From: Thiomargarita sp.
Lineage (GTDB): Bacteria > Pseudomonadota > Gammaproteobacteria > Beggiatoales > Beggiatoaceae
NCBI GenBank assembly: GCA_020721005.1
Contig: DYNP01000002.1
Span: 130,815 to 191,497 of the forward strand
Direction of reading: 5' to 3'
DNA: 60,683 nucleotides
Within the stretch, counting starts at the first letter, position 1; each line of letters begins with the position of its first letter. The translations under genes and the position numbers were made by a program. This document shows positions 15,060 through 36,500 of this stretch, piece after piece. The notes under the pieces were generated by a model. The model ran no database searches, was not told the origin of the DNA, and saw only the letters and a list, made by a program, of their open reading frames with translations.

Positions 15060-18000
15060 ATGAATCAAACCACCGAAAACATCGATACCCTCAGTGGGAT
15101 TGCCATCATTGGCATGGCTGGTCGTTTCCCCGGGGCCAAAAACATCGACACTTTTTGGAACAACCTCAAAAACGGTCTCGAAACCATCTCTTTTTTCACT
15201 GATGAGGAACTGTTGGCAGCAGGCCTCCCTCTGACCACCCTACAAAACCCTAACTATGTCAAAGCCAGAGGTTATTTAGAAGACACCGATTGCTTTGACG
15301 CTGCCTTCTTTGGCTATTCCTCCAGAGAAGCCGAATTGATGGACCCCCAACACCGCCTCTTTTTAGAAACAACTTACCACGCCCTAGAACACGCAGGCTA
15401 TGATTCCCAACGTTATACCGGTTGGATTGGCGTATTTGGGGGCGCCAGTGACAATCATTACCTCCACTACCTTCTCAGTCAATCGGCAGATCCCCTACAA
15501 ACCATGCAAGACACCCATGTGTTTTTTGGGAACTACCGGGACTTCATGATCACTCGCACCTCTTACAAACTCAACTTAACCGGTCCAGCCATCAACATCC
15601 AAACCGCCTGCTCAACCTCTTTAGTCGCCACCAACCTGGCCTGCCAATCCCTGCTCAATTACGAATGTGACCTCGCCGTGGCTGGAGGCGTTTCAGTACA
15701 CATTCCCAGCAAATCCGGTTACCTCTACGAAACCGGTGGCATTCCCTCTCCAGATGGACACTGCCGCACTTTTGACGCCCAAGCTCAAGGCACTGTCAGT
15801 GGAGACGGGGTGGCCTTAATCGTTCTCAAACGCCTAGAAGAAGCCTTGGCTGATGGCGATACCATCTATGCAGTCATCAAAGGTTTTGCCACCAACAATG
15901 ATGGTACCGACAAAATTGGCTACACTGCCCCCGGCGTAAACGGTCAAACCACAGTCATCGCCCTCGCCCACCAAATGGCAGGTGGAAATCTGGACAATGT
16001 ATCCTATATCGAAGCTCACGGGACCGCCACACCTCTAGGAGACCCTGTAGAAATCAAAGCCTTAACTCAAGCCTTTCGTCAACACACCCAACGCACCGGT
16101 TTCTGTCGCATTGGCTCAGTCAAAAGCAACGTCGGCCATCTCGATGCTGCTGCGGGAGTTACCGGTCTCATCAAAACAGTCCTAGCCTTACAACACGAAT
16201 TCATTCCCCCCACCCTACACTTTCAACACCCCAACCCTCAAATTGACTTTGCTCACAGTCCCTTCCTGGTCAATGCCCAACTCACTCCTTGGCCACGCGG
16301 AACTCAGCCTCGCCGTGCTGGAGTCAGTTCCTTTGGCATTGGCGGCACCAATACCCACATCGTCCTAGAAGAAGCCCCTGCCCATTCCCCCTCCAGTCCC
16401 TCTCGACCCTACCAACTGTTCCTATTCTCTGCCAAAACTGCTTCTGCTTTGGAGGACATCACTGCCCATCTACAACACCATCTCCAACAACACCCCCAGA
16501 TCAACTGGGCAGATGCCGCTTACACCTTACAAATTGGGCGCGGTCAATTTGAACACCGTCGATACATTCTCTGTCAAGACCTCGCATCCCTATTACATCC
16601 ACACCCCACCAACACCGGCACTCACCTCAAAAAACCAGCGCCCCCCGAAGTCATTTTCATGTTCACCGGGCAAGGCGCTCAATATCCAAACATGGGGCAA
16701 GGTCTCTATCAACACGAACCTCTATTTAGGGAACACTTCGATCACTGTGCCAAATTGCTCAAACCCATCCTAAATGTAGACCTCTGCACCCTATTGTATT
16801 CCACTTTAGAACAACAAACTGCAGCCCAACAACACATTCACCACACTGCATTTGCCCAACCCTTACTCTTCAGTCTCGAATATGCCCTAGCCAACCTACT
16901 CATAGCTTGGGGAATTCAACCCAAAGCCATGATTGGCCACAGCATCGGTGAATATGTAGCTGCCTGTTTAGCTGGGGTATTTTCCCTAACAGACGCGCTT
17001 ACCCTCATCGCACACCGCAGCCGGCTCATGCAAACCTTACCCACCGGTGCCATGCTGTCCATCACCTGGAGCATAACGGAACTGACCCCCTTTCTCAAAA
17101 CACAACCCTATGCCCACCTAATCTCCATCGCAGCCATCAATGCTCCCCTCTCCATTGTAGCGGCTGGGCCCATCGACAGCATCGAACAATTACAAACCGA
17201 CCTCCAAACCCAAGCCATTCCCACTCGACGCCTACACACTTCTCATGCCTTTCATTCCCACATGATGGAAGGTTGTCTCAACGCCTTAGCCACTGTTTTT
17301 AAAACTATTACTCTGCATGCCCCCCAACGTCCTTTCATCTCCAATCTCACTGGGACCTGGATTCAGCCGGAACAAGCCACCGATCCCCACTACTGGCTTA
17401 ACCACTTGCGCCACACTGTCCAATTTTCCCAAGGCCTCATCACCCTTTTAAACTCATTCCCAAACCAAATCTACCTTGAAATTGGTCCAGGCATTACCCT
17501 CAGTTCCCTATTACGCAAACACCTGATCCCTTCCAATCACGAAATCGTTCTCTCTACCCTACCTGCTCCTCAAAATCCTCAATCTGATCAAGAAATTATC
17601 CTAAACACCCTCGGACAACTTTGGTTAAGCGGACTTGAAATCAACTGGGCAACCTATTACCAACACGAACAACGTCACCGCATTCCCTTACCTGGCTACC
17701 CATTCACTCCCACTCGCCACTGGGCAAAACTCCAAAAATCTTCAACTCCCTCTCAAACTTCCTCAGATTTCAAGAACTTGAATAATGAGAACATAGCAGA
17801 AATAACTGCTCTGGTGCCTCCTCCCAAACAAGATGACTTGACAAACTGGTTCTACGCCCCCCAATGGCAACGAATCTTACCTCCAATACCCACTTCTCCC
17901 ACTGACCAATCCCGCTGGCTATTGTTGATGGATGACTGTGGAATAGGCCAACAACTGATCGACGAACTCCACCGTTACGGCCAATTCCCTATTCAAATCA

Positions 18001-21000
18001 CCGCTGGAGACCGTTACCAAATTCTCTCTGACCACGCCTACACCCTTCGTCCTCAACACCCAGAAGATTACCTTAACCTGTTACAACATCTGACCATTCT
18101 CCCTAACCGAATCGTTTACCTATGGGGAATCACCCAAAATTGTGGAACGGCAACCACCGCCTACCAACACTATAACCAATTGTTATATCTGATACAAGCA
18201 CTGGGAACTCACCACCCAGTCCCTTCCACTTCAAAAATCGAAACTGGCACCCTACAACTCACCCTTGTCACCAACCAAATGCAAGCGGTATTGCCCAATG
18301 AAGCACCTTGTCCAGCCAAAGCAGTTCTATTGGGACTGTGTAAAACTATTCCCCTAGAATATCCTCAATTCTCCTGCCGTTCCATAGACCTCCCAATTAC
18401 ACTCGACATTCCCGCTGCTCAACTGCTCCAGGAACTCATTGCCCCCGGTCCACAAGCTCCGCTCACTGCCTATCGTCATCAACACCGTTGGATTCAAAAT
18501 TACCCTGCCATTCCTCTACTCGCTCCTCTTTCAACTCCCCGATTAAGGGAAAAAGGCACCTACCTGATCATTGGTGGACTGGGAGGAGTGGGACTTGCTT
18601 TGGCAGATCATCTGGCTTACCACTGCCAAGCCAACATAGCCCTGGTGGGACGTTCTCCTTTTCCCTCAAAATCCACTTGGGAACATTGGTTAAAAGAAGG
18701 ACTGTCCAGCGCTTTGGAACACTGGGCACCTGCTCTGCTCACCGAAGAACAACACCTGTGGGAAAATACCGCCATTCGTGGCATTCCCGATTACCCAAAT
18801 CTCAATGCCCAACTGCTTGAATTGTGTTGTAGTTACGCTTACGATTACCTAAAAAGTCCATTGGGAACTGCCTCCAGTATTACTCTTTCTGCACTTAAAA
18901 ATACCCTGCACATCCAACCCAAGTTTGAAAAATTCATCGATTTCATGGTGCAATATCTCGCAGAGCACCACCGGGTAGAAATATCTGCACATTCCCATCC
19001 ACACCCCCTTATCACTTTCCTTGAAGCGCCGCGGTCTCCAACAGATTTACTGACTGATTTACACGCTCAATTTCCAGAATTTCGCGGTTTATACACACTA
19101 TTAGAGCGTTGTGCTGCTCATTATTCTCCAGCTCTCTCTGGAGCAATTCCTGCCATCAGTGTTCTCTATCCAGATGGCAAATCAGACTTCCTAAATGCCT
19201 GTGAACAAGACAGCATTCCCCACAGCTATGAACCCATTTATCGGAATTTACTGCGGCATCTACTTGAAAAACTGGTAGAAATCCATCCCCAAGGCAGACC
19301 ACTGCGGATTTTAGAAGTGGGTGCCGGGCAAGGTTTATTAACTTGGGAATTAATTCCCAGTTTGGAAGGTAAAGCCGTAGAGTACCACTTCTCGGATCTG
19401 GGTCCCTCTTTTATAAAACAAGCCCAACATAAAGCCCAAACCCAAGGCTTCAATTGCCTCCGTTTCCAAATTTTAGACATCGCTAAAAATCCGTTGGATC
19501 AAGGGTTTGAGCAAGAATCTTTTGACATTATCTTGGGCATGAATGTGGTCCATGCCACCCCTCATTTAGAAGAGACCTTATTTCACCTCCAAACTCTATT
19601 GGCCCCCCAAGGTCTATTGGGACTTATCGAAACCACGCAATCCTATCCATGGGTAGATATGGCTTGGGGACTTACTGAAGGGTGGTGGTATTTTAAAGAC
19701 TACCCATTGCGTTCTCAATCGCCTCTGTTGTCCCTAGAGCAATGGGAATCTTTCCTAAAAACTCAGCCTTTTGACACAATAAAAATTTACCCCAACGCTC
19801 CAGAAATTCGTTTCAAATCAGACGTTGGACTCATCCTTGCTCAAAAGCGGGCTCGTTCTCAACGATGGCTGCCGGCAGCTGAATTTTCAGAAATGGGTCA
19901 TTTACAACGCATTCGGGCTCAAATTCTCAAATTACAAGCATTGGAACGACAAGGCGCTGAAATTGCAGTTTATCAAGCCGATGTTGCAGATCAAGCCCAA
20001 CTGAGCAGCGTCTTGGCTGCAGTGCATGACCGTTTTGGTCCTCTAAATGGCGTGATTCATGCGGCCCTGGTGCTAAAAGATGGCATGATACAATTTAAAG
20101 ATCCGCAACTGGCCCGGCAAGTGTTTGCCCCCAAAATTACGGGCACGGAAGTGCTCTATGAATTGGTAAAATCCCAACCGCTGGATTTCTTGGTCTTGTG
20201 CTCTTCACTGGCTTCTATCATAGGTACCTATGCCCAATCGGACTATTGTGCTGCCAACGCCTATCAAGATGCTTTTGCTCATCAAAAAAGACATCAAGAT
20301 CAATTCCCAATTTGGTCAATCAATTGGGGAATCTGGCAAGACACTGGAGCAGCTATGCGGTTGCTGATGAGTAAAACGGCTGCCGCCAGTCGACCCCAGT
20401 GGGTCTCACATCCCCTTTTTGACTATCGCTTGGTTTTTGCCACGCAAATTTTATACTATGGACGATTGCAAATTGCCAAAGATTGGATACTCAAGGAACA
20501 CCGTCTCAATCAACAGGCCGTGCTTGCCGGGACTGTTTACTTGGAATTGGCTCGAGCCGCTTTTCAGCACCATACTCAACAGTCTACTTTGGAACTGCAC
20601 GATGTTTACTTCCTAAAACCGTTGGTGGTCCCAGAAGGTGCAGAAATTGAATTTGTCACCTTACTTGAACCCATGGTGGACAAGTCTGGTTTTCAGTTCA
20701 CTGTTCTCAGTGGAGACCATATTGAACATGCCACTGGCACACTTTTGCCCGGCCCAGCAGTGCCATCTCAAACTCACAATATTGAGTTGCTCAAGCACCA
20801 TTGTCCTCAATTTTTAATCACTTCCTCAAATCATACTTCTTCAGAAATGGATTTGACCGCAGTGGGACCCGTGGCAGTGGGACCGCGGTGGACGCAAGCT
20901 ATACAATCTATACAACTGGGTCAGCACCAAGCCTTGGCTTTTCTCAGTTTGCCCACTCACTATCAAGACGATCTTCTGCATTATCACTGCCATCCTGCTT

Positions 21001-23156
21001 TGTTGGACATGGCCACCAGTTTTGCTCTTGGCCAAGGCGACTTTTATTTACCGCTCGCTTATCAAAAAATATCGTATTATCAAGCACTTCCCGCCAATTT
21101 CTATGCCTATGCCAGATATTTGGAAGACAGCACTTCTGGGCAAGAAACTCTTTCCTATGACCTCATATTACTGACCGAGACTGGACAAGAATGTCTCAGC
21201 ATCACAGGCTTCACATTACGCAAAGTAGACACCGCTCATTTATCCCTAGATACTTTCCCAGTCACCCAATTGGACATGAGTCGACGCGTGATCCCCAGTT
21301 TTAACCCGGAATTACAGGAAGGCATGACTTCAGAAGAAGGTGCCCAAGCCTTCATCCGAATTTTATCTCAAGACGCTCCCCAAATCGCAGTCTCCACCCA
21401 AGAATTGACGGCTGTCTTAAAACGCAATCAAACTCAATCTATCCTGCGCAATAAAACCGAACATTTACAATCCTTTCAAGTAATTGCCCAACAAATCGAA
21501 CAACGCCAAACCCAAGTTCCCAAACCTCAATCTACCGATTTTTCTCATCATTGGGAATTTATTCTAACCTCTATCTGGCAAGAAGTACTTGGAGTTCCCA
21601 TGCTGACCACAGAGGACAACTTTTTTGAACTGGGGGGAGATTCCCTACTGGCAATTATGGTCACTACCCGACTCAAAAATGCTTTGCATCTGGAGGTTTC
21701 CCCTACTTTACTATTTAAGGCGCCCAGTATTACCCTATTGATCCAGGAATTGGAAAAACTGCAAACCAAAGAAAAATCACTTGCCCTCCCCCTTCAACCT
21801 ATAGAAACTGTTTCGGAAACTGCCGATACGATCAATATGTTACCTTTGACCTTTGGACAACAACGGATGTGGTATCTTGCCACTCAGTTACCACAGGATG
21901 ATGTTTATATTATTCCCAGTGTCTATAAAATTGTGGGACCTTTGCAAATTCAAGCCCTTAAATCCAGCTTAGCGGCTCTGATTGAACGTCATGATGCCCT
22001 GCGCACCACCTTTATTCGGCAACATAACTTGGTGAAACAAGTTATTAACAAACATCAAACTTTGGCATTGACAGAAATCAATTTATTGGAACTTCCACCT
22101 TCGGAAAAACTTTCCAAACTGCAACAGTTACTGTCCCAACAAGTACAGCAACCCTTTCATTTGTTAGAACAATTACCTTGGCGCTTCCTATTAATTCAAG
22201 TAGCTGCCGACGAATTCATCTTGAGCCTGGTATTCCATAATCTGATTATCGATGGCTGGTCATTTGGACTCCTCAATCAGGAATTGGCCCTTTTATACAA
22301 TGCATTCAGTTCCCATCAACCCTCTCCGTTGCCCCAATTAAGTACTAATTATGCAGATTACACCCGTTGGCAACAACAGCATTTTCAAGGCGCAACTTTG
22401 GCGACTACGGTCTCCTATTGGCAACAGAGACTGACCACTTTACCAGCCACCTCTCTGCCCTATGACCATTCCCCTGAAATTGTTCTCAATCTATATCGTG
22501 GTAAAGTGATCAACCTTCACCTACCCACTTTGTTAGCTAACCAACTGAAAATATTCAATACTAAACAGCATTCCACCCTATTTATCACCCTGTTAACCAC
22601 CTTTACCCTATTGTTACGAAATAACTTATCTCAAGATCATATCACGGTATGGTCCCCATTTGCAAACCGGCATCGTCAGGATTTGGAGAACGTTGCGGGA
22701 CTGTTTGTCAATGCCCTGCCCATCGACCTGGATTGCAGCGGGTATCCTTCTTTTATAGAACTGGTACAACGCTGTCAATCCACTCTTTTGGAGTTAACTC
22801 AACACAGCCATTTCCCTTTTACAGCCCTGCAAGAGCAATGCGATTTTGTGCCCAATAACCTCAGTAGAGTGGAATTTGTTGTGCATAATTACTCATTTGA
22901 GCTAATGAAACTCAACGAACTGACGGTAACTCCCTTACCCATGGATATTGATTCCACCGCCTTTGATTTGGAACTGCATCTATGGGAACTTAACCGCAGT
23001 GGCTTCTCCGAACCGGTCCCTGATGAGGAAAGTGGGATTGCCGGCCAATTGTTTTATAACACGGCCTTTTTTGAACATATCACCATTCAACAACTGATAG
23101 AAGATTTTTATCAACTGTTGGGCAGTGTATTAACTCACCCCGAGCACCCTGTTTAG
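15060..23156 (+). CDS. Hybrid PKS with C-terminal NRPS condensation domain
   Basis: A 2698-residue megasynthase. Order read from motifs: KS (~10-440, Cys184 in TACSTS, His320 and His360); AT (~530-890, Ser628 in GHSIGE; HAFH at ~729-732 suggests malonyl-CoA); KR structural part and NADPH loop (GGLGGVG, ~1171); an embedded C-methyltransferase (~1230-1595, LEVGAGQG); the rest of the KR (~1600-1770, Ser in CSSLAS, Tyr in SDYCAANA); a DH-like hotdog domain (~1785-2075); a carrier (GGDSL); and a condensation domain running to the C-terminus. It has no loading domain, so the starter must come from elsewhere. The condensation motif reads HNLIIDG, not HHxxxDG. The expected product is a reduced, alpha-methylated ketide passed to the NRPS at 27.5 kb. 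No Shine-Dalgarno sequence is obvious. Confidence 0.93.
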   Translation: MNQTTENIDTLSGIAIIGMAGRFPGAKNIDTFWNNLKNGLETISFFTDEELLAAGLPLTTLQNPNYVKARGYLEDTDCFDAAFFGYSSREAELMDPQHRLFLETTYHALEHAGYDSQRYTGWIGVFGGASDNHYLHYLLSQSADPLQTMQDTHVFFGNYRDFMITRTSYKLNLTGPAINIQTACSTSLVATNLACQSLLNYECDLAVAGGVSVHIPSKSGYLYETGGIPSPDGHCRTFDAQAQGTVSGDGVALIVLKRLEEALADGDTIYAVIKGFATNNDGTDKIGYTAPGVNGQTTVIALAHQMAGGNLDNVSYIEAHGTATPLGDPVEIKALTQAFRQHTQRTGFCRIGSVKSNVGHLDAAAGVTGLIKTVLALQHEFIPPTLHFQHPNPQIDFAHSPFLVNAQLTPWPRGTQPRRAGVSSFGIGGTNTHIVLEEAPAHSPSSPSRPYQLFLFSAKTASALEDITAHLQHHLQQHPQINWADAAYTLQIGRGQFEHRRYILCQDLASLLHPHPTNTGTHLKKPAPPEVIFMFTGQGAQYPNMGQGLYQHEPLFREHFDHCAKLLKPILNVDLCTLLYSTLEQQTAAQQHIHHTAFAQPLLFSLEYALANLLIAWGIQPKAMIGHSIGEYVAACLAGVFSLTDALTLIAHRSRLMQTLPTGAMLSITWSITELTPFLKTQPYAHLISIAAINAPLSIVAAGPIDSIEQLQTDLQTQAIPTRRLHTSHAFHSHMMEGCLNALATVFKTITLHAPQRPFISNLTGTWIQPEQATDPHYWLNHLRHTVQFSQGLITLLNSFPNQIYLEIGPGITLSSLLRKHLIPSNHEIVLSTLPAPQNPQSDQEIILNTLGQLWLSGLEINWATYYQHEQRHRIPLPGYPFTPTRHWAKLQKSSTPSQTSSDFKNLNNENIAEITALVPPPKQDDLTNWFYAPQWQRILPPIPTSPTDQSRWLLLMDDCGIGQQLIDELHRYGQFPIQITAGDRYQILSDHAYTLRPQHPEDYLNLLQHLTILPNRIVYLWGITQNCGTATTAYQHYNQLLYLIQALGTHHPVPSTSKIETGTLQLTLVTNQMQAVLPNEAPCPAKAVLLGLCKTIPLEYPQFSCRSIDLPITLDIPAAQLLQELIAPGPQAPLTAYRHQHRWIQNYPAIPLLAPLSTPRLREKGTYLIIGGLGGVGLALADHLAYHCQANIALVGRSPFPSKSTWEHWLKEGLSSALEHWAPALLTEEQHLWENTAIRGIPDYPNLNAQLLELCCSYAYDYLKSPLGTASSITLSALKNTLHIQPKFEKFIDFMVQYLAEHHRVEISAHSHPHPLITFLEAPRSPTDLLTDLHAQFPEFRGLYTLLERCAAHYSPALSGAIPAISVLYPDGKSDFLNACEQDSIPHSYEPIYRNLLRHLLEKLVEIHPQGRPLRILEVGAGQGLLTWELIPSLEGKAVEYHFSDLGPSFIKQAQHKAQTQGFNCLRFQILDIAKNPLDQGFEQESFDIILGMNVVHATPHLEETLFHLQTLLAPQGLLGLIETTQSYPWVDMAWGLTEGWWYFKDYPLRSQSPLLSLEQWESFLKTQPFDTIKIYPNAPEIRFKSDVGLILAQKRARSQRWLPAAEFSEMGHLQRIRAQILKLQALERQGAEIAVYQADVADQAQLSSVLAAVHDRFGPLNGVIHAALVLKDGMIQFKDPQLARQVFAPKITGTEVLYELVKSQPLDFLVLCSSLASIIGTYAQSDYCAANAYQDAFAHQKRHQDQFPIWSINWGIWQDTGAAMRLLMSKTAAASRPQWVSHPLFDYRLVFATQILYYGRLQIAKDWILKEHRLNQQAVLAGTVYLELARAAFQHHTQQSTLELHDVYFLKPLVVPEGAEIEFVTLLEPMVDKSGFQFTVLSGDHIEHATGTLLPGPAVPSQTHNIELLKHHCPQFLITSSNHTSSEMDLTAVGPVAVGPRWTQAIQSIQLGQHQALAFLSLPTHYQDDLLHYHCHPALLDMATSFALGQGDFYLPLAYQKISYYQALPANFYAYARYLEDSTSGQETLSYDLILLTETGQECLSITGFTLRKVDTAHLSLDTFPVTQLDMSRRVIPSFNPELQEGMTSEEGAQAFIRILSQDAPQIAVSTQELTAVLKRNQTQSILRNKTEHLQSFQVIAQQIEQRQTQVPKPQSTDFSHHWEFILTSIWQEVLGVPMLTTEDNFFELGGDSLLAIMVTTRLKNALHLEVSPTLLFKAPSITLLIQELEKLQTKEKSLALPLQPIETVSETADTINMLPLTFGQQRMWYLATQLPQDDVYIIPSVYKIVGPLQIQALKSSLAALIERHDALRTTFIRQHNLVKQVINKHQTLALTEINLLELPPSEKLSKLQQLLSQQVQQPFHLLEQLPWRFLLIQVAADEFILSLVFHNLIIDGWSFGLLNQELALLYNAFSSHQPSPLPQLSTNYADYTRWQQQHFQGATLATTVSYWQQRLTTLPATSLPYDHSPEIVLNLYRGKVINLHLPTLLANQLKIFNTKQHSTLFITLLTTFTLLLRNNLSQDHITVWSPFANRHRQDLENVAGLFVNALPIDLDCSGYPSFIELVQRCQSTLLELTQHSHFPFTALQEQCDFVPNNLSRVEFVVHNYSFELMKLNELTVTPLPMDIDSTAFDLELHLWELNRSGFSEPVPDEESGIAGQLFYNTAFFEHITIQQLIEDFYQLLGSVLTHPEHPV

Positions 23157-23288: not shown

Positions 23289-25295
23289 ATGAATTCCAAC
23301 TCGACTCTATCCAGCCTCACTCCCTGGCGACATTCTGCAGCCAGAGATAAATTACTGAAAATAAAGACCATTTGTTCTGAAAACCCGGTAACCCTGGTCG
23401 TACCCCCTGTGGCCCTGTTGGATCGACCTGCCCTTTCAGTTCATATCTTACAAGGGTGTGCTGCTCAAGACAGCCAAACAGCAGTGGGAATCTTTTACGC
23501 CAATCTTTGCTTCGGAGCTTGGTTGGGACTCTCTACAAACAATGACTTATGTTATCTCAGTCCCCGTTACCTATTGTCAGAGCGACTGTTTGCTCAAGTT
23601 GCCTATGGTGTGCCAAAACTGGGCCAACAATCCCAAGAAACTTATCTGACCATGTTACGGGAAGAATTTCAAGGTGAAAAACAGTTTGGATTGACTTATG
23701 CGGAATTGCAACAATTGGCTGAGGATATAGAAAACTGGGTAAATGATATTGCTCAAACTTTGGTCAGCTTAAATTCCCAAGTGATTGGTTGTACCACTAT
23801 TTTTGAACAAACTGCTGCCAGTATAGCCATTCTCAACGCAGTCAAACGCTTATCACCCCACACCATTACCATTATCGGGGGAGCAAACTGCACCGGTGAA
23901 ATGGCAGCAGGGATTGCCTCCTTGGGCTCTACAATTGACTATATTTTTTCTGGGGAAGCCGATGCCCAATTTCCCCAATTTCTTAAACAACTTCAACAAG
24001 GACAACTGCCTACTGAAAAAATTATTCACTGTTCCCCCTATTTTGATCTGGACACCATTCCAACTCCCAATTACCAAGAATTCTTTGAGCAACAACAGCA
24101 TTTCTTCTCATCTTCTTCTCCAAAAGATGACAATCCACACGCATTCCCCATCAGCACAGATTTGCCATTTGAAAGCAGTCGCGGTTGCTGGTGGGGCATG
24201 AAACACCAATGTACATTCTGTGGTATGGATAAAGACTCTTTAACCTATCGCCAAAAATCAGCCTCACGCGCCCTATCGGAACTCAAAGAGTTGGTCTCTA
24301 CCTACTCGATAAAAGCAATTTTAGCCTATGACAGCATTATGCCCCATACCTATTTCAAGGAATTATTGCCAAAACTGAAAGAAGAATTGTCTGGGGTCGA
24401 CCTATTTTATGAACAAAAAGCCAACATTTCCCTGGCTCAAATGCGTCAACTGAAAGAAGCTCATATCGAAGTCATACAACCTGGTATTGAAGCGCTATCC
24501 AGTTCCCTATTGAAACGAATGAACAAAGGCGTCACAGCAGATCGAAATATAGCCACTTTACGATATGCCAGAGCCTGTGGAGTCGCTCCCAATTGGAATT
24601 TACTGTGTGGTTTCCCAGGAGACAGTTGGCAAGATTACCAAGAGACCTTGGCACTGTTACCCCTATTGCAACACTTGACTCCCCCAGCTATTCTCTGTCA
24701 ACTCAACTTGGATCGCTTCAGTCCCTATTTTATGCAACCTGAGCAATTTGGAATTCGCAATTTACGACCTTTAGACAGCTATGCCCAAGTATTGCCCAAA
24801 CAAGCTCATATCGACAAAATAGCCTATCGTTTCAATGGCGACTATGACAGTGCCATTTTCACTTATCCAGAACTCATTCCGCAACTTAATCAAGCCATTG
24901 TAACTTGGCGATCCCATTGGGTGCCCAGTGCAGAAATTCACAATCCTCGTTTAATTTTACCCCCCACGGCTGAAACTGAAACCCGATTGCCCACCTTGCA
25001 AGTAACTCAACTATCCACTGACTGTTACCAATTGCGAGACACTCGCCAATTGCCCACCGTTGACAAATCCTTACAATCGATCAACCGAAATCAAGCTCAA
25101 GCTGCCTTAGTCTCTTATCCACTATCAACCCCCCTATTATCAGCAGACACTCGTCAATGGGCCTTGGACCATCAAGTCGCGATCATCATGGACAATAAAT
25201 GGGTACCTTTGGCCACCGCTCACCCAGACCTACTTGCAGAATTTGAACATCATACTCACCATATTCCTATTTTATCAGAAAGAGAACGAATATAA
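23289..25295 (+). CDS. B12-binding radical SAM protein, RiPP-maturase C-methyltransferase type
   Basis: A 668-residue protein. Residues ~35-240 form a cobalamin-binding-like Rossmann region (LVVPPVALLDRPALSVHILQG; IIGGAN at ~195). The radical-SAM core starts near 290 with cysteines at 300, 308 and 311. Their Cx7CxxC spacing in SSRGCWWGMKHQCTFCG differs from canonical CxxxCxxC but is typical of the RiPP maturation radical SAM C-methyltransferase family. IQPGIEALSSSLLKRM and LLCGFPGDSWQDY are further family signatures. The C-terminal ~100 residues form the small accessory domain. It is a tandem paralogue of the next gene, between the PKS and NRPS genes. It probably C-methylates an unactivated carbon on a carrier-bound or peptide substrate; substrate unknown. 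No precursor peptide gene was seen nearby. Confidence 0.85.
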   Translation: MNSNSTLSSLTPWRHSAARDKLLKIKTICSENPVTLVVPPVALLDRPALSVHILQGCAAQDSQTAVGIFYANLCFGAWLGLSTNNDLCYLSPRYLLSERLFAQVAYGVPKLGQQSQETYLTMLREEFQGEKQFGLTYAELQQLAEDIENWVNDIAQTLVSLNSQVIGCTTIFEQTAASIAILNAVKRLSPHTITIIGGANCTGEMAAGIASLGSTIDYIFSGEADAQFPQFLKQLQQGQLPTEKIIHCSPYFDLDTIPTPNYQEFFEQQQHFFSSSSPKDDNPHAFPISTDLPFESSRGCWWGMKHQCTFCGMDKDSLTYRQKSASRALSELKELVSTYSIKAILAYDSIMPHTYFKELLPKLKEELSGVDLFYEQKANISLAQMRQLKEAHIEVIQPGIEALSSSLLKRMNKGVTADRNIATLRYARACGVAPNWNLLCGFPGDSWQDYQETLALLPLLQHLTPPAILCQLNLDRFSPYFMQPEQFGIRNLRPLDSYAQVLPKQAHIDKIAYRFNGDYDSAIFTYPELIPQLNQAIVTWRSHWVPSAEIHNPRLILPPTAETETRLPTLQVTQLSTDCYQLRDTRQLPTVDKSLQSINRNQAQAALVSYPLSTPLLSADTRQWALDHQVAIIMDNKWVPLATAHPDLLAEFEHHTHHIPILSERERI

Positions 25296-25407
25296 AATTA
25301 CCTCATACTTTCTTAATTTCATATCGGTCTCTGAGATACAACTTCTTGCAAACTCAGTCCAAGTACAGTATTGCCCAAAAACCATTCACGCTTACCAGGA
25401 AGCCATC

Positions 25408-27372
25408 ATGTCTGCCTCTTCTTCAATCAATACCCATTTTTTTGCCCACACCGACTGGAAAACCTCCAATTCCCGGGCAAAATTATTACAATTCACTCGT
25501 TCTCCTGCAACCCCTTTATCTGAAGAAAACTCAATTATTCTGGTAGTCCCACCCCCTGCCCTGTTGGATCGACCCTCCTTATCTGTCCACGTTTTACAAG
25601 GCACTGCCGCCCAACAACAACTCAAAGTAGAAGTATTCTATGCCAACTTATCCTTTGGAGACTGGATTGGAGAATTGGCTAATATTGAACTCTGCTTTCT
25701 GCCCCCCAAATATTTACTTTCAGAACGCCTATTTGCAAAAGTTGCCTATGAAGGAGTACCGTTGCTGGGACACCAAGCTGACACCCTATTTACTGAAGTT
25801 CAACGAGACTTTGCCCTTCGCAACATCCATTTGGACTATGATGAATTTCAAAACCTATCAACTGCCATCGCAGATTGGGTACATGATGTGGCTCAAATGC
25901 TGGTCAGCTGGAAACCGCAAGTAGTTGGTTGCACCACCACTTTTGAACAAACAGCTTCCAGCATAGCCATTCTAACTGCCATCAAACAACTGTCCCCAAA
26001 CACCTTAACAATCATCGGTGGCGCCAATTGCTCAGGAGAAATGGCCACTGGAATTGCCTCACTAAGTCCTTACATTGACTATGTATTTTCTGGAGAATCT
26101 GAAACCGTATTTCCAACTTTTTTAAAACAAGTGAAATCAGGTCAACTTCCTCAAAATAACATCATCCAAGGTGCTCCCTGCACCACCATGGACACCATTC
26201 CCACCCCTGACTACCATGAATTTTATACTCAACAAGCTGCCCTCGTAAATCCCTTACCTCTTAACACTTGGTTACCATTTGAGACCAGTCGCGGATGTTG
26301 GTGGGGGGACAAACAAGCCTGCACCTTTTGCGGATTAAATGGCGACGACCTCAAATACCGACGCAAGTCTCCCTCTCGAGTTTTGGAACAATTACAAGAC
26401 TTATTCTCCACCTATTCTCCTCGTAAAATCATGTCCTATGACAATATTATGCCCCATGCCTATTTTAAAGAATTATTACCTCAACTGGCTGAAATATATG
26501 GAAATAGCGACTGTGAATTTTACTATGAGCAAAAAGCCAACATGACTTTGGAACAAGTGCGACGATTACAAGCCGCCCACGTTCGAGTCATTCAACCTGG
26601 TATCGAATCACTTTCCACCTCCCTATTGAAACGAATGAGAAAAGGGGTCAGCGCTCCTCAAAACATCGCCCTGTTACGTTATGCCCGATCTTGTGGAATC
26701 ACCCTGAATTGGAATCTCCTCTATGCATTCCCAGGTGACAAATTGGAAGACTATCAGGAAACCTTACGAGTCCTGCCCTACTTGCGACATTTAAGTCCCC
26801 CTCTAAGCATGGACGCTTTGGGATTGGAACGTTTCAGTCCCTATTTCAATCATCCTGAAAACTATGGAATTCGGAACATTCGGCCATTATCCAGCTATGT
26901 CGACATTTTGCCCAAACATTCCAAAGTGACACAAGTGGCCTATAACTTTGCTTGGGAATATGACTGTGCCGCTTTTGATCATCCAGAAATTATTGAAGCA
27001 ATTCAACAAGAAATTTTAATTTGGCGAGGAACCTGGGTGCATGATGGAGATGTGTATACACCCAAAATTTTGCGAGTATCGGCAAACATTGAAGAAGGAA
27101 ATTATCCACTGCTACACATCTATTCTCAAGGCATGGAGGGTTATCGTCTGATAGACACCCGGGGACTGCCTGGGACTGTATCAACTCAACTGATCAACCT
27201 GGAACAGGCCAAAGCGGCACTGGTGACAAAACCACTGAAAAATTTGGCTATTTCTGAAGAAACTCGACACTGGGCCAACACTCATCAAGTGGCATTAGAA
27301 ATAGACAACACCTATGTTGCGCTGGCCACCGCCTCTCCAGAATTATTGGCACAATTTGAAGCAGACAAATAA
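25408..27372 (+). CDS. Second B12-binding radical SAM protein, RiPP-maturase type
   Basis: About 654 residues, closely similar to the preceding gene along its full length. Cobalamin-type N-terminal region (ILVVPPPALLDRPSLSV, IIGGAN at ~203), radical-SAM cysteines at 297, 305 and 308 (Cx7CxxC in RGCWWGDKQACTFCG), then IQPGIESLSTSLLKRM, LLYAFPGDKLEDY and LERFSPYF. The open frame extends to 25234, overlapping the first gene, but that extension has no counterpart in the paralogue. The ATG at 25408 has AGGA ~8 nt upstream and aligns with the paralogue's N-terminus. Two copies suggest two methylation sites or divergent specificity. Confidence 0.85.
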   Translation: MSASSSINTHFFAHTDWKTSNSRAKLLQFTRSPATPLSEENSIILVVPPPALLDRPSLSVHVLQGTAAQQQLKVEVFYANLSFGDWIGELANIELCFLPPKYLLSERLFAKVAYEGVPLLGHQADTLFTEVQRDFALRNIHLDYDEFQNLSTAIADWVHDVAQMLVSWKPQVVGCTTTFEQTASSIAILTAIKQLSPNTLTIIGGANCSGEMATGIASLSPYIDYVFSGESETVFPTFLKQVKSGQLPQNNIIQGAPCTTMDTIPTPDYHEFYTQQAALVNPLPLNTWLPFETSRGCWWGDKQACTFCGLNGDDLKYRRKSPSRVLEQLQDLFSTYSPRKIMSYDNIMPHAYFKELLPQLAEIYGNSDCEFYYEQKANMTLEQVRRLQAAHVRVIQPGIESLSTSLLKRMRKGVSAPQNIALLRYARSCGITLNWNLLYAFPGDKLEDYQETLRVLPYLRHLSPPLSMDALGLERFSPYFNHPENYGIRNIRPLSSYVDILPKHSKVTQVAYNFAWEYDCAAFDHPEIIEAIQQEILIWRGTWVHDGDVYTPKILRVSANIEEGNYPLLHIYSQGMEGYRLIDTRGLPGTVSTQLINLEQAKAALVTKPLKNLAISEETRHWANTHQVALEIDNTYVALATASPELLAQFEADK

Positions 27373-27532: not shown

Positions 27533-30500
27533 ATGACTGATCATACAAACAACCCTGATTTTCAAACGATTCATCAACGCTTTGAGTTTCAAGTTGAGCG
27601 GCATCCGGATAAACTTGCCATCATCGACAATCATCGCACCATAACCTATCGAGAACTCAATCAGCGTTCCAATCAACTGGCTCATTTTCTTCAAACATTG
27701 GGCATCCAACTTGAACAACCGATTGGAATTATTGCAGACCGTTCCATTGAAACGATCATGGCTATTTTAGCCATTTTAAAAGTGGGTGGGACCTATATTG
27801 CCCTGGATCCAAACTATCCCCAAAATCGCCTCAACTGGCTGTGGCAAGACGCTCAATTAAACCTACTTTTGACGCAAACCTCGCTCAACAATTCAACAGT
27901 AGCCACCTTTCCCGGTCGTCTCATTCCCTTGGATCAGGATTATAGCCACCATTCTGACCAAAATTTACCTCAAATCACCTCCTCACAACATCTTTCCCAT
28001 ATCATTTACACCTCGGGCTCTACCGGTCAACCCAAGGGAGTTTTGTTAGAGCATGGGAATGTCTTAAACCTCATGACTGCCTGCCAAACCGTTTTTGGTT
28101 TTACGGAACAAGATATCTGGGCTCTATTTCACAGTTTTGCCTTTGATGTGTCAGTCTGGGAATTGTGGGGTGCCCTGCTCCATGGAGGCACTGTGGTGAT
28201 GATTTCTCATCTGCTCAGCCGTTCCCCCGCTGATTTATACCAGTGCCTGTGTGAACAACGAGTTACGGTGCTCAACCAAACTCCCTTGGCTTTTTACCAA
28301 TTGGCTCAAGTGCAACAACATGCTCATCAACAACTCAGTTTGCGCTACATTATGATTGGAGGTGAGGTATTGGATTTTTCCCGTTTGGCCCCCTGGTTTG
28401 CCAGACTGGGTGACCAACATCCCCAAATCATCAACCTTTATGGGCTTACTGAGACCACGGTCAATGTCAGTTTTTACCGGCTGACTCAAGCGGATTGTCA
28501 ACGTTCTCAATGTTTGATTGGGCAAGCTATTCCCACAGTGCAAATCCATCTGTTGGATGCCGACCAACAACCAGTCCCAATTGGGACCATAGGGGAAATT
28601 TATGTGGGAGGCAAAGGCATTGCTCGTGGTTATTTAAACCGACCCGACTTAACCGCCCAACGCTTTATTTTTCACTCTAATGAAAGACTTTATCGCACAG
28701 GAGACTTAGGGCGTTTTTCCAATAATGGAATCTTGGAATATCTGGGTCGCAGTGATCAACAGGTGCAAATTCATGGCTTTAGAGTGGAACCAGGAGAAAT
28801 TGAAACTGTATTGAGACAACATGAATTGGTGGATGCCACAGTGGTTATTGCCCGTGAAGACCAACAGGTTGGGGAACGACAACTGGTAGCCTATGTGGTA
28901 TTCAAACAAAACACTCTCTCCCAAGTCAAGGACCAAGTTGCAGATTGGCAAAAATTGTATGAATATAAGTATGGAGAATTAACTGTTCCAACTACCCCTC
29001 CACTCCATAATTTTCTAGGCTGGCACAGCAGTTATACCGGTCTACCCATTCCCAATGATGAAATGCAAAATTGGGTGGCTCACACTTTGGAACGTCTTCA
29101 AGCCCTAAAACCCCAACGAGTGTTAGAAATTGGTTGTGGAACTGGATTGCTGTTATGGAGACTGGCACCCCAATGTTCAGAATACATAGGAACTGATTTT
29201 TCTCAAGCAGTCATTGAATACTTACGATACTGGCAAACCCAATTGTCAGGCTTTGAGCACGTGCAATTGCTGCACCAAGAAGCCAATCAATTCTCCAGCT
29301 TAGGCACTCAACAATTTGACACCATTATCATCAATTCAGTCGTTCAATATTTCCCCAGTCTAGATTACCTACAACAAGTCATCACAAATGCCCTATCTCA
29401 TCTGGTTCCCGGTGGACATTTATTCCTAGGCGATATTCGTAACTACTTGTTATTAAATGATTTTCACACTACTGTGCTCCTGGCCCAAGCATCCACTCCT
29501 CTGACCCCAGAACAATTGGCTTGGCAGCGTACACAAAATGTGGAGCGAGAAACTGAATTGCTAATTGATCCCACTTATTTTGGAACATTACCAACTCAAT
29601 ATCCTCAAATCAATCAAGTCAAAGTGTGGCCAAAACGTGGCCAAGATCGCAATGAATTAACCTGCTTTCGTTATGATGTAATTACACAAACTCATAACCT
29701 CATTTCCTCTTCAAATGAAGAAAAAAATGAAGCGATAACTCCCGTGATTTATGACTGGGAATCCTTAGATTTCAACATAATGCAACTTCCTCAACGTTTG
29801 ACAGAATGCTCTCAAGCTATTAAAATTTGTCGAGTGCCCAATCAACGTTTAAAAACCTCCGGCCTTGATCCGGAACTATTTTGGGAATGGTCTACAAATC
29901 TGCCTTACCAAGTTGAGGTCAGTTGGTTGAATACTGATTTAGAGGGAAGTTATGAAGTGATCTTCACTCCAAATTCCCAAACGACCTTGGCAGCACAATT
30001 GCGAACGACAGGTCTCACTTCACTCAATGCTCATTCCCCTGATTCCTTGTCTCCACGGTTTCCCACAGACAAACGATATGCAAATACCCCTTGGCAAGCC
30101 AAGTTGGAACGCCATCTCATTCCTCAACTCAGAAAATTTTTACAAGATCGTTTGCCAGATTACCTGGTGCCCACTGCCATTGTCAAATTAGACCGTTTAC
30201 CCCTGACAGTCAATGGCAAGGTGGACAAAAGAGCCCTGCCAGCACCCCCAAAAACTCGGGCCATTTTGGATTGCGACTATCTGGCACCACAAACTGTAGT
30301 GCAGCAACACTTGGCCCACATTTGGCAAACCGTTTTGGGAATTGAAGAACCCATTGGTATTCAAGACAATTTCTTTGAATTGGGTGGAGATTCTCTGAAA
30401 GTTATTCAAGTGATCAATCGAGCCAAAGATTTCCAACTCAATCTGTCTTTTGAACAATTTTTTAAATATCCAACCATTGCTGAATTAGTTATTCATCTTT

Positions 30501-33500
30501 CCCCATTTGAGTCTCCTCTGGAAATAGGCCCTGACCTTTCTCAAACCACCACCGATCAATCTGCGATTCAGACTTATCCGCTTTCTCCCTTACAAGCGGG
30601 AATGTTGTACCATATTTTACGAGAAGAGACCAGCACCGGAATGTATTTGATTCAATTCCTGCTGGATCTGCAAGGCGCTGTCAATCCACATCATTTTTCA
30701 CAAGCTTGCCAAGCTATATGCAATCGACATCCGGCTTTGCGCAGTTCTTTCCACTGGCAGGGCCGTCAACAACCTGTGCAAGTGGTTCATCCAGAAGTTG
30801 AAATTCAGGTATCTCAACAAGATTGGCGATCCCGATCAGCAAGTCAACAACGTTTGGAATTGGAAAAATTGGTTGAAGCCGATCGTATACAAGGCTTTGA
30901 TTTAACTCAAGTCCCTTTGTTAAGATTTACTTTAATTCAAACAACTGATCAACATAGCCAGTTGTTGCTCACCTATGTCCATCTGATTGTTTCAGAATGG
31001 GAACAATTGGTGCTGTTGGAAGAGTTATTTAAATATTATGAAGCGCTGCAAGCTGGGCAATCTTTACAATTACCCCCCACTCGACCCTATCGTGATTTTA
31101 TCAGTTATTTACACAGTTTGGATCGCCAAGCTCAGGAACAATTTTGGCGCCACACTTTACGAAATTACCAACCCACCCGTTTCCCGTTAATTCGTCGTGA
31201 AAAACTTCCTATAGCCTATCGGGAACAACAGTGGTCACTGCCCAATCAGTTGACTCAGCAATTGACCAATTTGGCCCGCCAACATAAAATCACTTTAAAT
31301 ACTTTGCTAACAGGAACTTATGCTCTGTTGTTGAGCAAATATTTGAGAACAGATGATGTGGCATTTGGTTTGGTATTTTCTGGACGCAATGTAACTTGGT
31401 CTGGTTTTGAACATACAGTTGGACTGTTTATCAACACCGTGCCATTGAGAGTTCCCATTTCTCCTAATGAGTCATTGGGAACTTGGTTAACGGCTTTACA
31501 AGCGCAAGTGGTTGAACTCAGCCGATATGAACACAGTTCCCTAGTGGATATTCAAGGTTGGAGTGAAGTGCCACGCGGTCAGGATTTGTTTGAAACCATA
31601 TTGGTATTTGATGAGGAGCGATTGGATGATTATCTCAATAAACACCTTTCTAGCTTACATATCAATGGGTTCCAAATTTTGTATGAGAGCACCAATTACC
31701 CACTGACTTTTGCAGTGATGAAAGGAACCCCGATGATGGTGCGTGCCATTTTCAATGAAGCGCAATTTGCCCCCACCACGGTTGAACGTTTGCTAGAGCA
31801 TTATCAAACTTTGTTGGAAAATTTAGTGATGGGACTGCTTGAAAATCAAGCTATTCACCAGTTGTCATTGGTCTCCCAGACTCAGCGCCATCAAGTTGTG
31901 AACACTTGGAATCAGACGGCCACCGATTATCCCAAACAACGCTGCATTCACGATTTATTTGAGCAACAAGTCGAGCATTCCCCACGGGCAGTGGCACTGG
32001 TATTTAAGGATCAACGCTTATCTTATGCAGAATTGAATGCCCGAGCCAATCAACTGGCCCATTTTCTGCGACAACAAGGAATAAATTTGGGACAGCCCAT
32101 TGGCCTGTGTTTGGAACGTTCCCTAGAGTCCATCATTGGTTTGTTGGGTATTCTCAAAGCAGGTGGAATCTATGTGCCCTTAGATCCTTCTTATCCCAAG
32201 GAACGCTTGGCTTTCATGTTGAAAGATACGCAACTGTCCATAATTTTGACTCAGCAATCCATATTACCCAACCTCCCCACCACCGCTGCTCAACCTTGGT
32301 GCCTGGATACCCAATGGCATCTTATTGCTCAGTCCAGTTCCCTTAATATTCCCAATAAGACCACTGCCAATTCGTTGGCTTACATCATGTACACCTCTGG
32401 CACCACCGGTTTACCTAAGGGAGTATGTATCACTCATCAAGCTGTGGTGCGGCTAGTTAAAGACACCAATTATATCCAATTGACTGCAAAAGATATTTTT
32501 CTGCAATTTGCACCCATGTCATTTGATGCCTCCACCTTTGAAATTTGGGGATGTTTGTTAAACGGTGGCCGTTTGGTCATCATGCCCCCTCACTTGCCCT
32601 CTCTAGAAGAATTGGGAACTGTTTTAAAACAGTATCATATTACTGTTTTGTGGTTGACTGCAGGCTTATTTCATCAAATGGTGGAGGAACGTCTGAGCGA
32701 TTTGGCTGGGCTTAAATACTTATTGGCGGGAGGAGATGTACTGGGAATCAAGGCAGTGCAGCGAATTTTACAACATTTCCCAACCATAACTTTAATCAAT
32801 GGCTATGGTCCCACTGAGAATACAACTTTCACTTGTTGCTATCCTATGTCTGGAAAAACTCTTTTGGATCATTCTGTTCCTATTGGTTATCCAATTGCCA
32901 ACACCCAAGTGTATGTGGTCGATCATCATCAACAACCATTGCCCACAGGAGTACCAGGAGAATTGTTAATCGGAGGAGATGGTTTGGCAACTGGTTACCT
33001 AAATCATCCCCAATTGACCGCCGAAAAATTCATTCCCCACCCCTTTAGCCAGAATTCCCAAGATCGTTTGTATAAGACTGGAGACTGGGTTTATTACCTC
33101 CCGGATGGCTGCCTTGAATTTTTGGGACGACTGGATCAACAAGTGAAAATTCGGGGATTTCGTATTGAGCCTCAGGAAATTGAGGTAGTGCTGGCTCAAC
33201 ATTCCCAAGTCAGTGAGGCAATTGTTGCTCCTTGGACAGATTCCGCGGGGCAAAAGCAATTGGTAGCCTATGTCATCCCCAAGCCCAATTTTGACTTGTT
33301 AGCCAATGAGTTACGTGATTTTCTAAAACCACGTTTACCAGACTATATGATTCCCAGCTTTTTCCAAATCCTGACCAGTTTGCCTTTAACTCCCAATGGT
33401 AAGGTAGACCGGCGCGCCCTGCCCAAACCCATCCCCACTGCCTCCCGAGTCTATATTGCGCCCCGGTCTCCAGAGGAAGAATTGCTGATTGGGATTTGGT

Positions 33501-36500
33501 CAGAAGTATTGGGCATCAATCAACCTGGAGTGCAGGATAATTTCTTTGAATTGGGTGGTCATTCCCTATTGGCTACTCAAGTGGTCTCTCGTATCCGGGC
33601 AGTGTTTCAGGTGGAACTTCCTTTGCGTTATTTGTTTGAATTCCCCACGGTTGAAGAATTGGTTAAACGCTTATTGGAATTGCAAAAAGTGCACTTGCCC
33701 ACGCTTCCCTTACAACCTGTTTCTAGAGCTGAACCATTGCCCTTATCCTTTGCTCAACAGAGACTGTGGTTCATTGAGAATTTTGCACCGGGGAACACTG
33801 CCTATATTGTGGTCAATGGATTGATTTTACGGGGAAATTTACAGATTTCTGCCCTTGAATTCAGTCTGCAAACCATTCTCCAACGTCAAGATTCTCTGCG
33901 AACCGTATTTCCCATGATACAAGGTCGTCCGGTCCAACAGATCTTACCCATGGTAAACTCTCCCTTAACTGTGGTGGATCTATCTGATCTGCCGGCAGAT
34001 TCTCAAACAACGGTCCTGTCCCAACATATTGCATTGAATAATCAGACCACTTTTAATCTCAACACAGGCCCCTTAACCCGTTTCAAGTTGATACGTTTGG
34101 CGCTCCAACATCATCTCCTGTTACTTGCCTTGCATCATATTATTTCAGATGGATGGTCTCTGGGGGTATTTTATCGGGAATTGAGCACTTGCTATCAGGC
34201 TGCATTGTCTAAAACTCCAGTGAACTTGCCCCAACTGCCTATCCAGTATGTAGATTTTGCGGTGGGTCAACGGGCTTGGTTGACAGGAGAAATCTATGAT
34301 CGGCAGATGAATTATTGGAAGTCTCAATTGGCTAATCTACCCGTTTTCCAATTTCCTACAGATTATTCCCGTCCCCCAATTCAAACTTTTTCTGGAGCCA
34401 CTGTGCCATTCCAGTTGTCAGAGTCCATGACTGTGGAATTGGAAAATTTAAGCCAAACTCAAGGAGTTACGTTGTTCATGACCTTGTTGGCAGCATTTTT
34501 GGGATTGCTGTTTCGCTACACAGGTCAAACAGACATTGCAGTGGGTTCCCCCATTGCCAATCGCAATCGACATGAAATTGAGCATTTAATTGGCTTTTTT
34601 GTAAATACTTTGGTATTGCGAGCCAATTTGTCGGAACGATTGCATTTTGATGAATTATTGCAACAAGTGCGTCAAACAACATTACAAGGGTATGCCCATC
34701 AAGATTTGCCATTTGAGCATTTGGTCGAGGAACTTCATCCAGAACGCAACACCAGTGTGAATCCTTTGATCCAAGTCATTTTTGCCTTGCAAAACAGTCC
34801 ATTAGCTCTCCCCAATCTGTCCGATTTGACGGTGGAATTATTTGATCATCCCATCAGTGCCACCCGTTTTGATTTAGAATTCCATTTGTGGCGTCAACCT
34901 CGTGTTGGATTAACTGGTTTTTTAATTTATAATACTGATTTGTTTGCATTGCCGAGTCTTCAACGTTTGTTGGGTTATTTTGAACGCTTCTTGCAATCAG
35001 TATTGCTGAATCCCAAACAGGCTTTGGCTGATATTGCATGGTTAACAGTTGAGGAACGTTTTGAATTGTTGCATGACTTGAATCAAACAGTGCTGCCCTA
35101 TCCCAGAGAACAGGCGGTGCATACAGTTTTTGAGTCCCAAGTGGCACAAACCCCAGATGCTATCGCCTTGTTATGGAAGGATTCTCATCTCACATATTTG
35201 GCGCTCAATCAACGTGCAAATCAGTTGGCTCATTACCTACAGTCCTTGGGAATCAAACCAGAAACTCCAGTGGGAATTTATCTGTCTCGCAGTTTAGAGA
35301 TGATTATTGGCATATTGGGAATTCTTAAAGCCGGTGGATGTTATGTGCCATTGGATCCAGCTAACCCGGCGGAAAGAGTGCGCTTTATTTTAGAAGATAC
35401 CCAAACGCAATGGGTTCTCATACAACGGGATTGCATACCTGGAGCACCCAATGGAGTGATTCCCATTTGTTTGGAGCAACACTGGCCAATGATTGCTCAA
35501 TATTCGGTTGAGAATTGCTCAGTGGAAGTGAATGCAGACAGTTTGTGTTATGTGACTTATACTTCTGGTTCCACTGGGAAGGCCAAGGGGGTGAGTGTGG
35601 TGCATCGGGGAGTGGTTCGTTTGGTGAAAAACAGCAATTATGTAACTTTCGATAAAACTGATGTATTATTACAGTTGGCCCCTTTGGCTTTTGATGCTTC
35701 CACATTTGAAATTTGGGGCGCTTTGTTGAACGGTGCTCGATTGGTCATTGCTCATCCGGAAAAGCCGACTTTGGCTGAATTGGGAGAATTGTTGCGGCAA
35801 TATCAAGTTTCCGTGTTGTGGTTGACGGCCAGTTTGTTTCAAATGATGGTGGCTGAGCAGTTGGAAGATTTGGCCAGTGTACAACAGTTATTGGCTGGGG
35901 GAGATGTGTTGCCTCCATCTTCTGTACGTCGAATATGGCAACGTTTTCCCCAATGTACAGTGATCAATGGTTATGGTCCCACAGAGAATACTACTTTCAC
36001 ATGTTGTTATCGCATGCAATCTTCGACACTGTGGGGGGAAAGTGTACCCATTGGTAAACCAATTTCTAACACGCAAGTTTATATTTTAGATGCGCAAATG
36101 GCTTTGGTTCCTCGAGGTATGGTGGGAGAATTGTATGCAGGGGGAGATGGTTTGGCTCGAGGATATTGGCATCGTCCTGATTTGACTACGGAGCGGTTTT
36201 TGCCCAATCCATTCCAAGATGAGACCGGGTCAGCGATTTTATATCGTACTGGAGATTGGGTGCGGTGGCGAGAAGAAGGTGTTTTGGAATTTATAGGTCG
36301 CTTGGATGATCAAGTGAAAATTCGTGGTTTTCGGATTGAACTGGCTGAAATTGATAAGGTTTTAAGTGGTTACCCGGCGATCAAACAATCGTTGACCTTG
36401 GCCAAACAGGCTAAATCTGGAGACAAACGATTGGTGGCTTATGTGATACCAGACTTTGGCGTTGCCGAAGTGGCGGCTGAGACTCAATCTGATGCTCAGG

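What the first reader, a model, noticed from the sequence alone, without database searches (positions are those of the whole stretch)
23289..27372. Tandem RiPP-maturase-type B12 radical SAM enzymes inside a PKS-NRPS cluster
Two paralogous proteins with the Cx7CxxC radical-SAM motif and B12-type N-termini sit between the PKS and NRPS genes. Their family is known for C-methylating ribosomal peptides, yet no short precursor ORF or leader-like peptide is visible in the flanking gaps (23157-23288, 27373-27532). The downstream NRPS seems to load valine twice. I infer that the pair may methylate unactivated carbons of a carrier-bound peptide, for example valine to tert-leucine as in polytheonamide-type chemistry. 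That would be an unusual use of a RiPP enzyme family on an assembly line.
Basis: partly seen in the sequence, partly recalled or inferred. Interest (0 to 1): 0.85.

Follow-up and report, generated by a model that had tools for sequence, protein, structure and literature searches.

The report
RiPP-type methylase pair on assembly line
Two vitamin-B12 enzymes of a kind best known for decorating ribosome-made peptides sit inside a gene cluster that builds its peptide without ribosomes, and the cluster's layout suggests that they add methyl groups to valines of a small molecule built like the sponge compound hemiasterlin, whose biosynthetic origin was still called unknown in 2025.

Summary
Both proteins (23289-25295; 25399-27372) score 513 and 534 bits against TIGR03975, "RiPP maturation radical SAM C-methyltransferase" (cut-off 282); no other in the genome passes the cut-off. 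They lie between a PKS and an NRPS gene; two leader families (NHLP, Nif11) gave no match in the genome. A second genus carries, over three contigs, the orthologous PKS, both paralogues, the NRPS and a P-type ATPase, with the same A-domain codes. The five carrier-linked enzymes form one clade, apart from precursor-linked members of the same bacterial family. The KS is of the NRPS-fed type, so the line probably runs NRPS then PKS: N-Me-X, Val, N-Me-Val, then a C-methylated, reduced, dehydrated C2 unit. With Val-to-tert-Leu methylation this is the backbone logic of hemiasterlin; the A1 code does not look aromatic, so it is probably not hemiasterlin itself. The principle has a precedent: DscE (2025) methylates a nonribosomal discodermin at valine in vitro.

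The parts
15060..23156 (+). PKS gene: KS - AT (GHSIGE/HAFH) - KR with an inserted C-methyltransferase - DH - carrier - terminal C domain with HNxxxDG
   Evidence: Pfam; motifs; MT domain best PDB match CurJ; 52% identical orthologue in G032 with the same domains
23289..25295 (+). rSAM 1: B12-type radical SAM C-methyltransferase, TIGR03975
   Evidence: 513.3 bits, Cx7CxxC, tree
25399..27372 (+). rSAM 2: paralogue, TIGR03975; ORF open from TTG 25234
   Evidence: 534.0 bits, AF2 model mean pLDDT 92.9, fold match to OxsB/TsrM/TokK
27533..38212 (+). NRPS gene: A1(DVWNMGLVN)-MT-PCP-C(VHLIVSE)-A2(DAFWLGGTF)-PCP-C(HHIISDG)-A3(DAFWLGGTF)-MT-PCP; no thioesterase match; ORF open from TTG 27467
   Evidence: Pfam, motifs (code positions by eye), MT1 best PDB match the NRPS chain 5wmm; orthologue in G032 with the same codes
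38333..40471 (+). P1B-like P-type ATPase without the CPx metal motif (GPMS in its place, by eye); a homologue follows the NRPS in G032 and lies 2.1 kb from the rSAM gene in G028

Best explanation
A PKS-NRPS cluster makes a short lipophilic peptide-polyketide, and the two B12 radical SAM enzymes C-methylate unactivated side-chain carbons of it. The line probably runs against gene order: NRPS (N-methyl-X, Val, N-methyl-Val), then the PKS module adds a malonyl unit that is C-methylated, reduced and dehydrated, and the last C domain (HNxxxDG) handles release. Val Cbeta to tert-leucine, the reaction of PoyC and DscE, is the likeliest for at least one enzyme. Product logic: N-Me-X / tert-Leu / N-Me-homovinylogous-Val, i.e. 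hemiasterlin-type. Shown: family, fold by prediction, gene content, conservation in a second genus, clade, codes, KS type. Inferred: substrates, number and site of methylations, timing, release, product.
For: TIGR03975 for both. Cx7Cx2C as in PoyC, which methylates Val/Ile Cbeta (PMC11285071 passages). Orthologous PKS, rSAM pair, NRPS and ATPase in another genus, with the same codes. Five carrier-linked enzymes form one clade in a 48-row tree, SH-aLRT 100. An NHLP leader lies 0.4 kb from one of the two TIGR03975 genes of G029 and 1.7 kb from that of G027, below the curated cut-off; no match in G000, G032, G028 (gaps). The third setting (G028) has a stand-alone carrier protein and an AMP ligase. 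KS in the NRPS-fed clade: of 20 comparison KSs in it, 11 follow an A domain in frame, 2 follow a gene ending in an A domain, 1 follows KR, 6 undetermined (tree). PKS MT matches CurJ best, NRPS MT1 the NRPS chain 5wmm. DscE precedent.
Against: No chemistry, metabolite or expression data. Leader families other than NHLP and Nif11 were not searched; 22 of the 29 comparison genomes that hold a TIGR03975 relative also lack an NHLP match, so its absence is weak evidence. The A1 code resembles Ser/Thr codes (recalled), not aromatic ones, so residue 1 does not match hemiasterlin. The DH motif is atypical (EHRLNQQAVLAG in the window) and DH follows KR. The G032 cluster has an amidinotransferase for which the own genome gives no match. 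The tree is of the quick kind, without bootstrap, and has long branches outside the clade. The shorter C-terminal domain, which I first read as loss of leader recognition, also occurs in other members.
Confidence: 0.66

Rival explanations
1. Methylation takes place after release, as in vitro with DscE, rather than on the carrier protein. (A variant of the best explanation, not exclusive of it.)
For: DscE turned discodermin D into B, and B into a little A, as free peptides. Pfam shows only radical SAM and weak B12-binding in these proteins, no docking domain.
Against: The three clusters of this clade contain carrier proteins, and in G028 the carrier is a stand-alone one. CysS, a fold relative, acts on carrier-bound substrate.
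Confidence: 0.45
2. The enzymes work on an unlinked ribosomal precursor elsewhere in the genome and their place in the PKS-NRPS cluster is accidental.
For: The family is named for RiPP maturation; only two leader families were tested.
Against: The gene content is kept in a second genus at about 50-57% protein identity for PKS, rSAMs and NRPS. No NHLP or Nif11 match in the own genome. Clade apart from precursor-linked members.
Confidence: 0.08
3. The line is co-linear with gene order (PKS first), so the PKS unit is an N-terminal acyl cap and not a vinylogous residue; the rSAM pair still methylates the peptide.
For: Gene order; the PKS C domain and the NRPS A1 would together form a normal C-A-MT-PCP module split over two proteins. 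The G032 amidinotransferase could supply a starter.
Against: The KS falls in the NRPS-fed clade; no loading domain in the PKS; the PKS C domain has HN in place of HH in both genera; the NRPS begins with A and shows no thioesterase.
Confidence: 0.25
4. The enzymes catalyse another B12-radical reaction (ring formation, thioether) or methylate residue X or the polyketide part rather than valine.
For: OxsB and BchE show non-methyl chemistry among B12 radical SAM enzymes (PMC13331322, passage); OxsB is the top fold match. Two paralogues suggest two sites.
Against: The characterised enzymes that resemble them most in motif or setting, PoyC and DscE, are C-methyltransferases of Val or Ile; I had neither sequence, so their place in TIGR03975 was not tested.
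Confidence: 0.2

Closest known systems
DscE / discodermin NRPS ('Ca. Entotheonella monilis', Nat Chem Biol 2025, PMC12858407)
   Same: Cobalamin radical SAM C-methyltransferase encoded with an NRPS; methylates valine (V5) of a nonribosomal peptide that bears t-leucine
   Different: One enzyme, 14-module NRPS; shown on the free peptide.
PoyB / PoyC (polytheonamide RiPP)
   Same: Two C-methyltransferases used in one pathway; PoyC has the Cx7Cx2C motif and methylates Val/Ile Cbeta (PMC11285071, passages)
   Different: Substrate is a ribosomal precursor peptide; none is found here. Sequences not compared.
CysS (cystobactamid)
   Same: B12 radical SAM enzyme serving an NRPS line; carrier-protein-bound substrate (PMC8992657, passage); solved with pantetheinylated substrate (titles of 9n1b and 9n1c; 9n1c also)
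   Different: About 14% identity in the fold alignment; different substrate (methoxy group of an aminobenzoate)
Hemiasterlin (sponge tripeptide; structure recalled)
   Same: N-Me residue, Val-derived residue (tert-Leu), N-Me-Val extended by an alpha-methyl-enoate, free acid: the same order of N-Me / no N-Me / N-Me plus C-methylated, reduced, dehydrated C2 unit
   Different: Hemiasterlin begins with a methylated tryptophan; A1 here does not look aromatic. A search listed 19 papers; in the four I looked into no gene cluster for it is named, and PMC12858407 calls its origin unknown.

Membership tests
TIGR03975 RiPP maturation radical SAM C-methyltransferase (sequence family) | Score over curated cut-off, near full length | tested here: met
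   513.3 and 534.0 bits against 281.85; profile 1-551 and 1-581 of 606
TIGR03975 RiPP maturation radical SAM C-methyltransferase (sequence family) | Cx7CxxC cluster motif | tested here: met
   RGCWWGMKHQCTFC and RGCWWGDKQACTFC
RiPP maturase (function) | Linked precursor with leader peptide | tested here: not met
   No precursor-like ORF in the gaps (judgement); no NHLP or Nif11 match in the genome; other leader families not tested
B12 radical SAM methylase fold | Cobalamin-binding Rossmann domain plus radical SAM barrel | tested here: met
   Model of rSAM 2, mean pLDDT 92.9; best fold matches OxsB, TsrM, TokK. Cobalamin binding itself not tested. DxHxxG (recalled motif) is absent before the radical SAM motif in 40 of 42 rows, window pair included; two rows have it just before that motif
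NRPS-product C-methyltransferase (DscE-like) | Activity on a nonribosomal peptide | not testable with these tools
   Needs enzyme assay
Hemiasterlin-type assembly line | A-MT / A(Val) / A(Val)-MT / KS-AT-CMT-KR-DH domain content | tested here: met
   Val and malonyl assignments recalled; DH motif atypical
Hemiasterlin-type assembly line | NRPS-to-PKS order | tested here: inconclusive
   KS clade supports it; gene order is the reverse
Hemiasterlin-type assembly line | First residue aromatic (Trp) | tested here: not met
   A1 code DVWNMGLVN in both genera (residues, positions by eye); nearest codes recalled are Thr/Ser

The most novel reading that the evidence does not exclude
A conserved family of hemiasterlin-type assembly lines, in which a dedicated carrier-acting clade of the PoyC-type family makes tert-leucine and a second C-methylated residue on the line. 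It would give a genetic blueprint for the scaffold of the sponge antimitotics and explain how tert-leucine enters NRPS-PKS products.
Probability: 0.3. Interest if true: 0.86.

Novelty: new variant of a known kind. Interest (0 to 1): 0.64.

Why it matters
tert-Leucine occurs in plocabulin and hemiasterlin, which PMC12858407 calls of unknown biosynthetic origin. This cluster is a compact (three NRPS modules, one PKS module) and testable case of likely radical C-methylation in an NRPS-PKS pathway, and its two paralogues allow a direct test of carrier-bound against post-release methylation by a family named for ribosomal peptides.

Tried and rejected
Loss of leader recognition as a mark of the clade: AF2 shows three strands, three helices and a wing in the C-terminal domain of the L044 enzyme, which has an NHLP neighbour, and one helix fewer in window rSAM 2. 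I first took this for a clade mark, but the stretch from DTR to the wing is 58-59 aa in the five, 51-56 in four and 60-61 in eight other rows, and 66-77 in the remaining 25 of 42, so I dropped it as evidence.

The small-ORF listing around family members (93 ORFs) was not used: in GC-rich contigs real precursors can be masked by antisense ORFs.

Amidinotransferase as a required part: present in the G032 cluster; no match in G000 or G028 (that search had no genome known to match).

Orthology of the paralogues: 26 columns pair rSAM 1 with 1 and 2 with 2 across the two genera, 19 pair by genome, 8 cross; the tree leaves them unresolved. So an old duplication is likelier than not, no more.

Papers: 10 searches, in the open PMC library only. 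PMC12858407: section 10 whole and passages of other sections. PMC11285071, PMC8992657, PMC13331322, PMC7750434, PMC6264372: passages only. PMC7024214: looked up, the term is not in the held part of the text. Papers listed (crocacin) were not opened; hydrolytic release by a terminal C domain is recalled.
Full report
What is there. Two same-strand ORFs, 23289-25295 and 25234-27372 (ATG at 25399), encode proteins 55% identical to each other. Both belong to TIGR03975 with 513.3 and 534.0 bits (cut-off 281.85) and carry Cx7CxxC. Of 4 matches in this 4.05 Mb, 133-contig genome only these two pass the cut-off. The structural model of the second protein (mean pLDDT 92.9) matches OxsB, TsrM and TokK best. 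The cobalamin motif DxHxxG (recalled) is absent before the radical SAM motif in 40 of 42 aligned members, the window pair included.

Surroundings. Upstream is a PKS gene with KS, AT, KR with an inserted methyltransferase, DH, carrier and a last C domain. Downstream is an NRPS gene with A-MT-PCP-C-A-PCP-C-A-MT-PCP, then a P-type ATPase. Neither big gene shows a thioesterase. Genes further out look unrelated: RelA and porphobilinogen synthase upstream, NADH-dehydrogenase or hydrogenase-like subunits downstream.

Conservation. Of 42 genomes of the family, own included, 5 have TIGR03975 over cut-off: own, G027, G028, G029, G032. G032, of another genus, has on one contig a PKS 52% identical over its length with the same domain set, an amidinotransferase, and two tandem rSAM genes. 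Its NRPS lies on two other contigs: A1 at 57% identity and the rest at 53-54%, followed by the same kind of P-type ATPase. The A codes agree at the nine positions read: A1 DVWNMGLVN, A2 and A3 DAFWLGGTF (residues, positions placed by eye). Whether the transposase ORF at the end of one contig means that the G032 NRPS is broken cannot be told. G028 has a single member of the clade in another setting: carbamoyltransferase, AMP ligase, stand-alone carrier protein, GNAT-like protein, aldo/keto reductase and a P-type ATPase.

Own clade. In a tree of 48 rows the five carrier-linked enzymes are one side of a branch with SH-aLRT 100; the method was the quick one, without bootstrap, and long branches outside the clade were flagged. 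Seven rows were dropped first: four fragments of two loci (L074, L089), L073 and L076 without the motif, and L088, identical to L053. The enzymes of G027 and G029, same bacterial family, lie elsewhere; an NHLP-leader ORF lies 0.4 kb after one of the two G029 genes and 1.7 kb after the G027 gene, at 42.5-46.8 bits, below the curated 50.9. In wider searches 6 of 369 class genomes and 7 of 398 phylum genomes, own included in each, had a match at 1e-50; the best outside the family is 494.8 bits against 1181-1256 for the clade. A separate TIGR03975 gene in G464 lies next to a PKS, but also next to a Cys-rich ORF and a SPASM peptide maturase: another association, outside the clade. Around 29 relatives from genome contigs, tblastn with the window PKS and NRPS found nothing at 1e-10 in the held flanks, which are up to 10 kb and often shorter.

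Precursor. No NHLP match in G000, G032 or G028, no Nif11 match in G000 or G032 (one in G028 on another contig). This is weak: only 7 of 29 comparison genomes have an NHLP match, and other leader families were not searched.

Order of the line. With the window KS as query, 54 KS matches at 1e-80 were found in six genomes of the family, of which 30 were fetched. They split into 22 at 56% identity or more and 8 at 45% or less, with SH-aLRT 100 for the split. Among the 20 of the upper group other than the window's and G032's, 11 follow an A domain in frame, 2 follow a gene that ends in an A domain, 1 follows a KR, and 6 could not be told. In the lower group 1 follows a KR in frame, 3 follow a gene with KR, 1 has a weak A-like match (23%), 3 could not be told. 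The 24 weaker matches that were not fetched were not classed. Hence the window KS most likely takes a peptide from the NRPS. The methyltransferase of the PKS is of the CurJ kind (a C-methyltransferase by recall); that of NRPS module 1 matches the NRPS chain 5wmm (an N-methyltransferase by recall). AT has GHSIGE and HAFH (malonyl by recall). The last C domain has HNxxxDG, and the first C domain of the NRPS has VHLIVSE or IHLILSE, in the two genera.

Reading. N-Me-X, Val, N-Me-Val, then a C2 unit with alpha-methyl and double bond: this is the order of hemiasterlin (structure recalled), in which the middle residue is tert-leucine. Methylation of valine Cbeta is what PoyC does (PMC11285071, passages) and valine of a nonribosomal peptide is what DscE methylates (PMC12858407, section 10). 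The same paper names hemiasterlin and plocabulin as tert-leucine compounds of unknown biosynthetic origin and suggests radical C-methylation for them. It also mentions another Entotheonella NRPS cluster with a radical SAM C-methyltransferase homologue. The A1 code does not fit tryptophan, so the product is at most a relative.

Limits. No chemistry is shown. Timing (carrier-bound or after release) is open. Code-to-residue assignments, the meaning of HNxxxDG, the malonyl motif and the hemiasterlin structure are recalled. The literature check covers open PMC papers only.

Noticed in passing
window 38333-40471; L111 9275-11332; L042 13485-15584: P1B-like P-type ATPases near the rSAM genes' clusters in three genera, with DKTGT but without the CPx metal motif (GPMS, APMV, GPLS in its place, by eye): perhaps an exporter or immunity part of these clusters.
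   Followed up: partly
L041 8700-9887; L110 23-1606 and 2178-2954: The G032 cluster has an arginine:glycine amidinotransferase between PKS and rSAM genes, and a serine carboxypeptidase and a methyltransferase just before its NRPS.
   Followed up: partly
L125 2790-11062 (G464): A Cys/Gly-rich ORF, a TIGR04463-like radical SAM/SPASM peptide maturase (504.7 bits, cut-off 525), a TIGR03975 enzyme and a type I PKS lie in a row: a possible RiPP-PKS mixture.
   Followed up: no
L110 4572-5522: A transposase-like ORF at the contig end right after NRPS A1 in G032 (named from its sequence by eye): either an insertion in the NRPS or an assembly break.
   Followed up: no
L042 1033-15584 (G028): A further cluster with carbamoyltransferase, AMP ligase, stand-alone carrier protein, GNAT-like protein, one rSAM of this clade and a P-type ATPase.
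   Followed up: partly
G000:C79:287536-288783: A second NRPS-fed KS in an open frame of 6323 aa in the same genome, outside the window.
   Followed up: no
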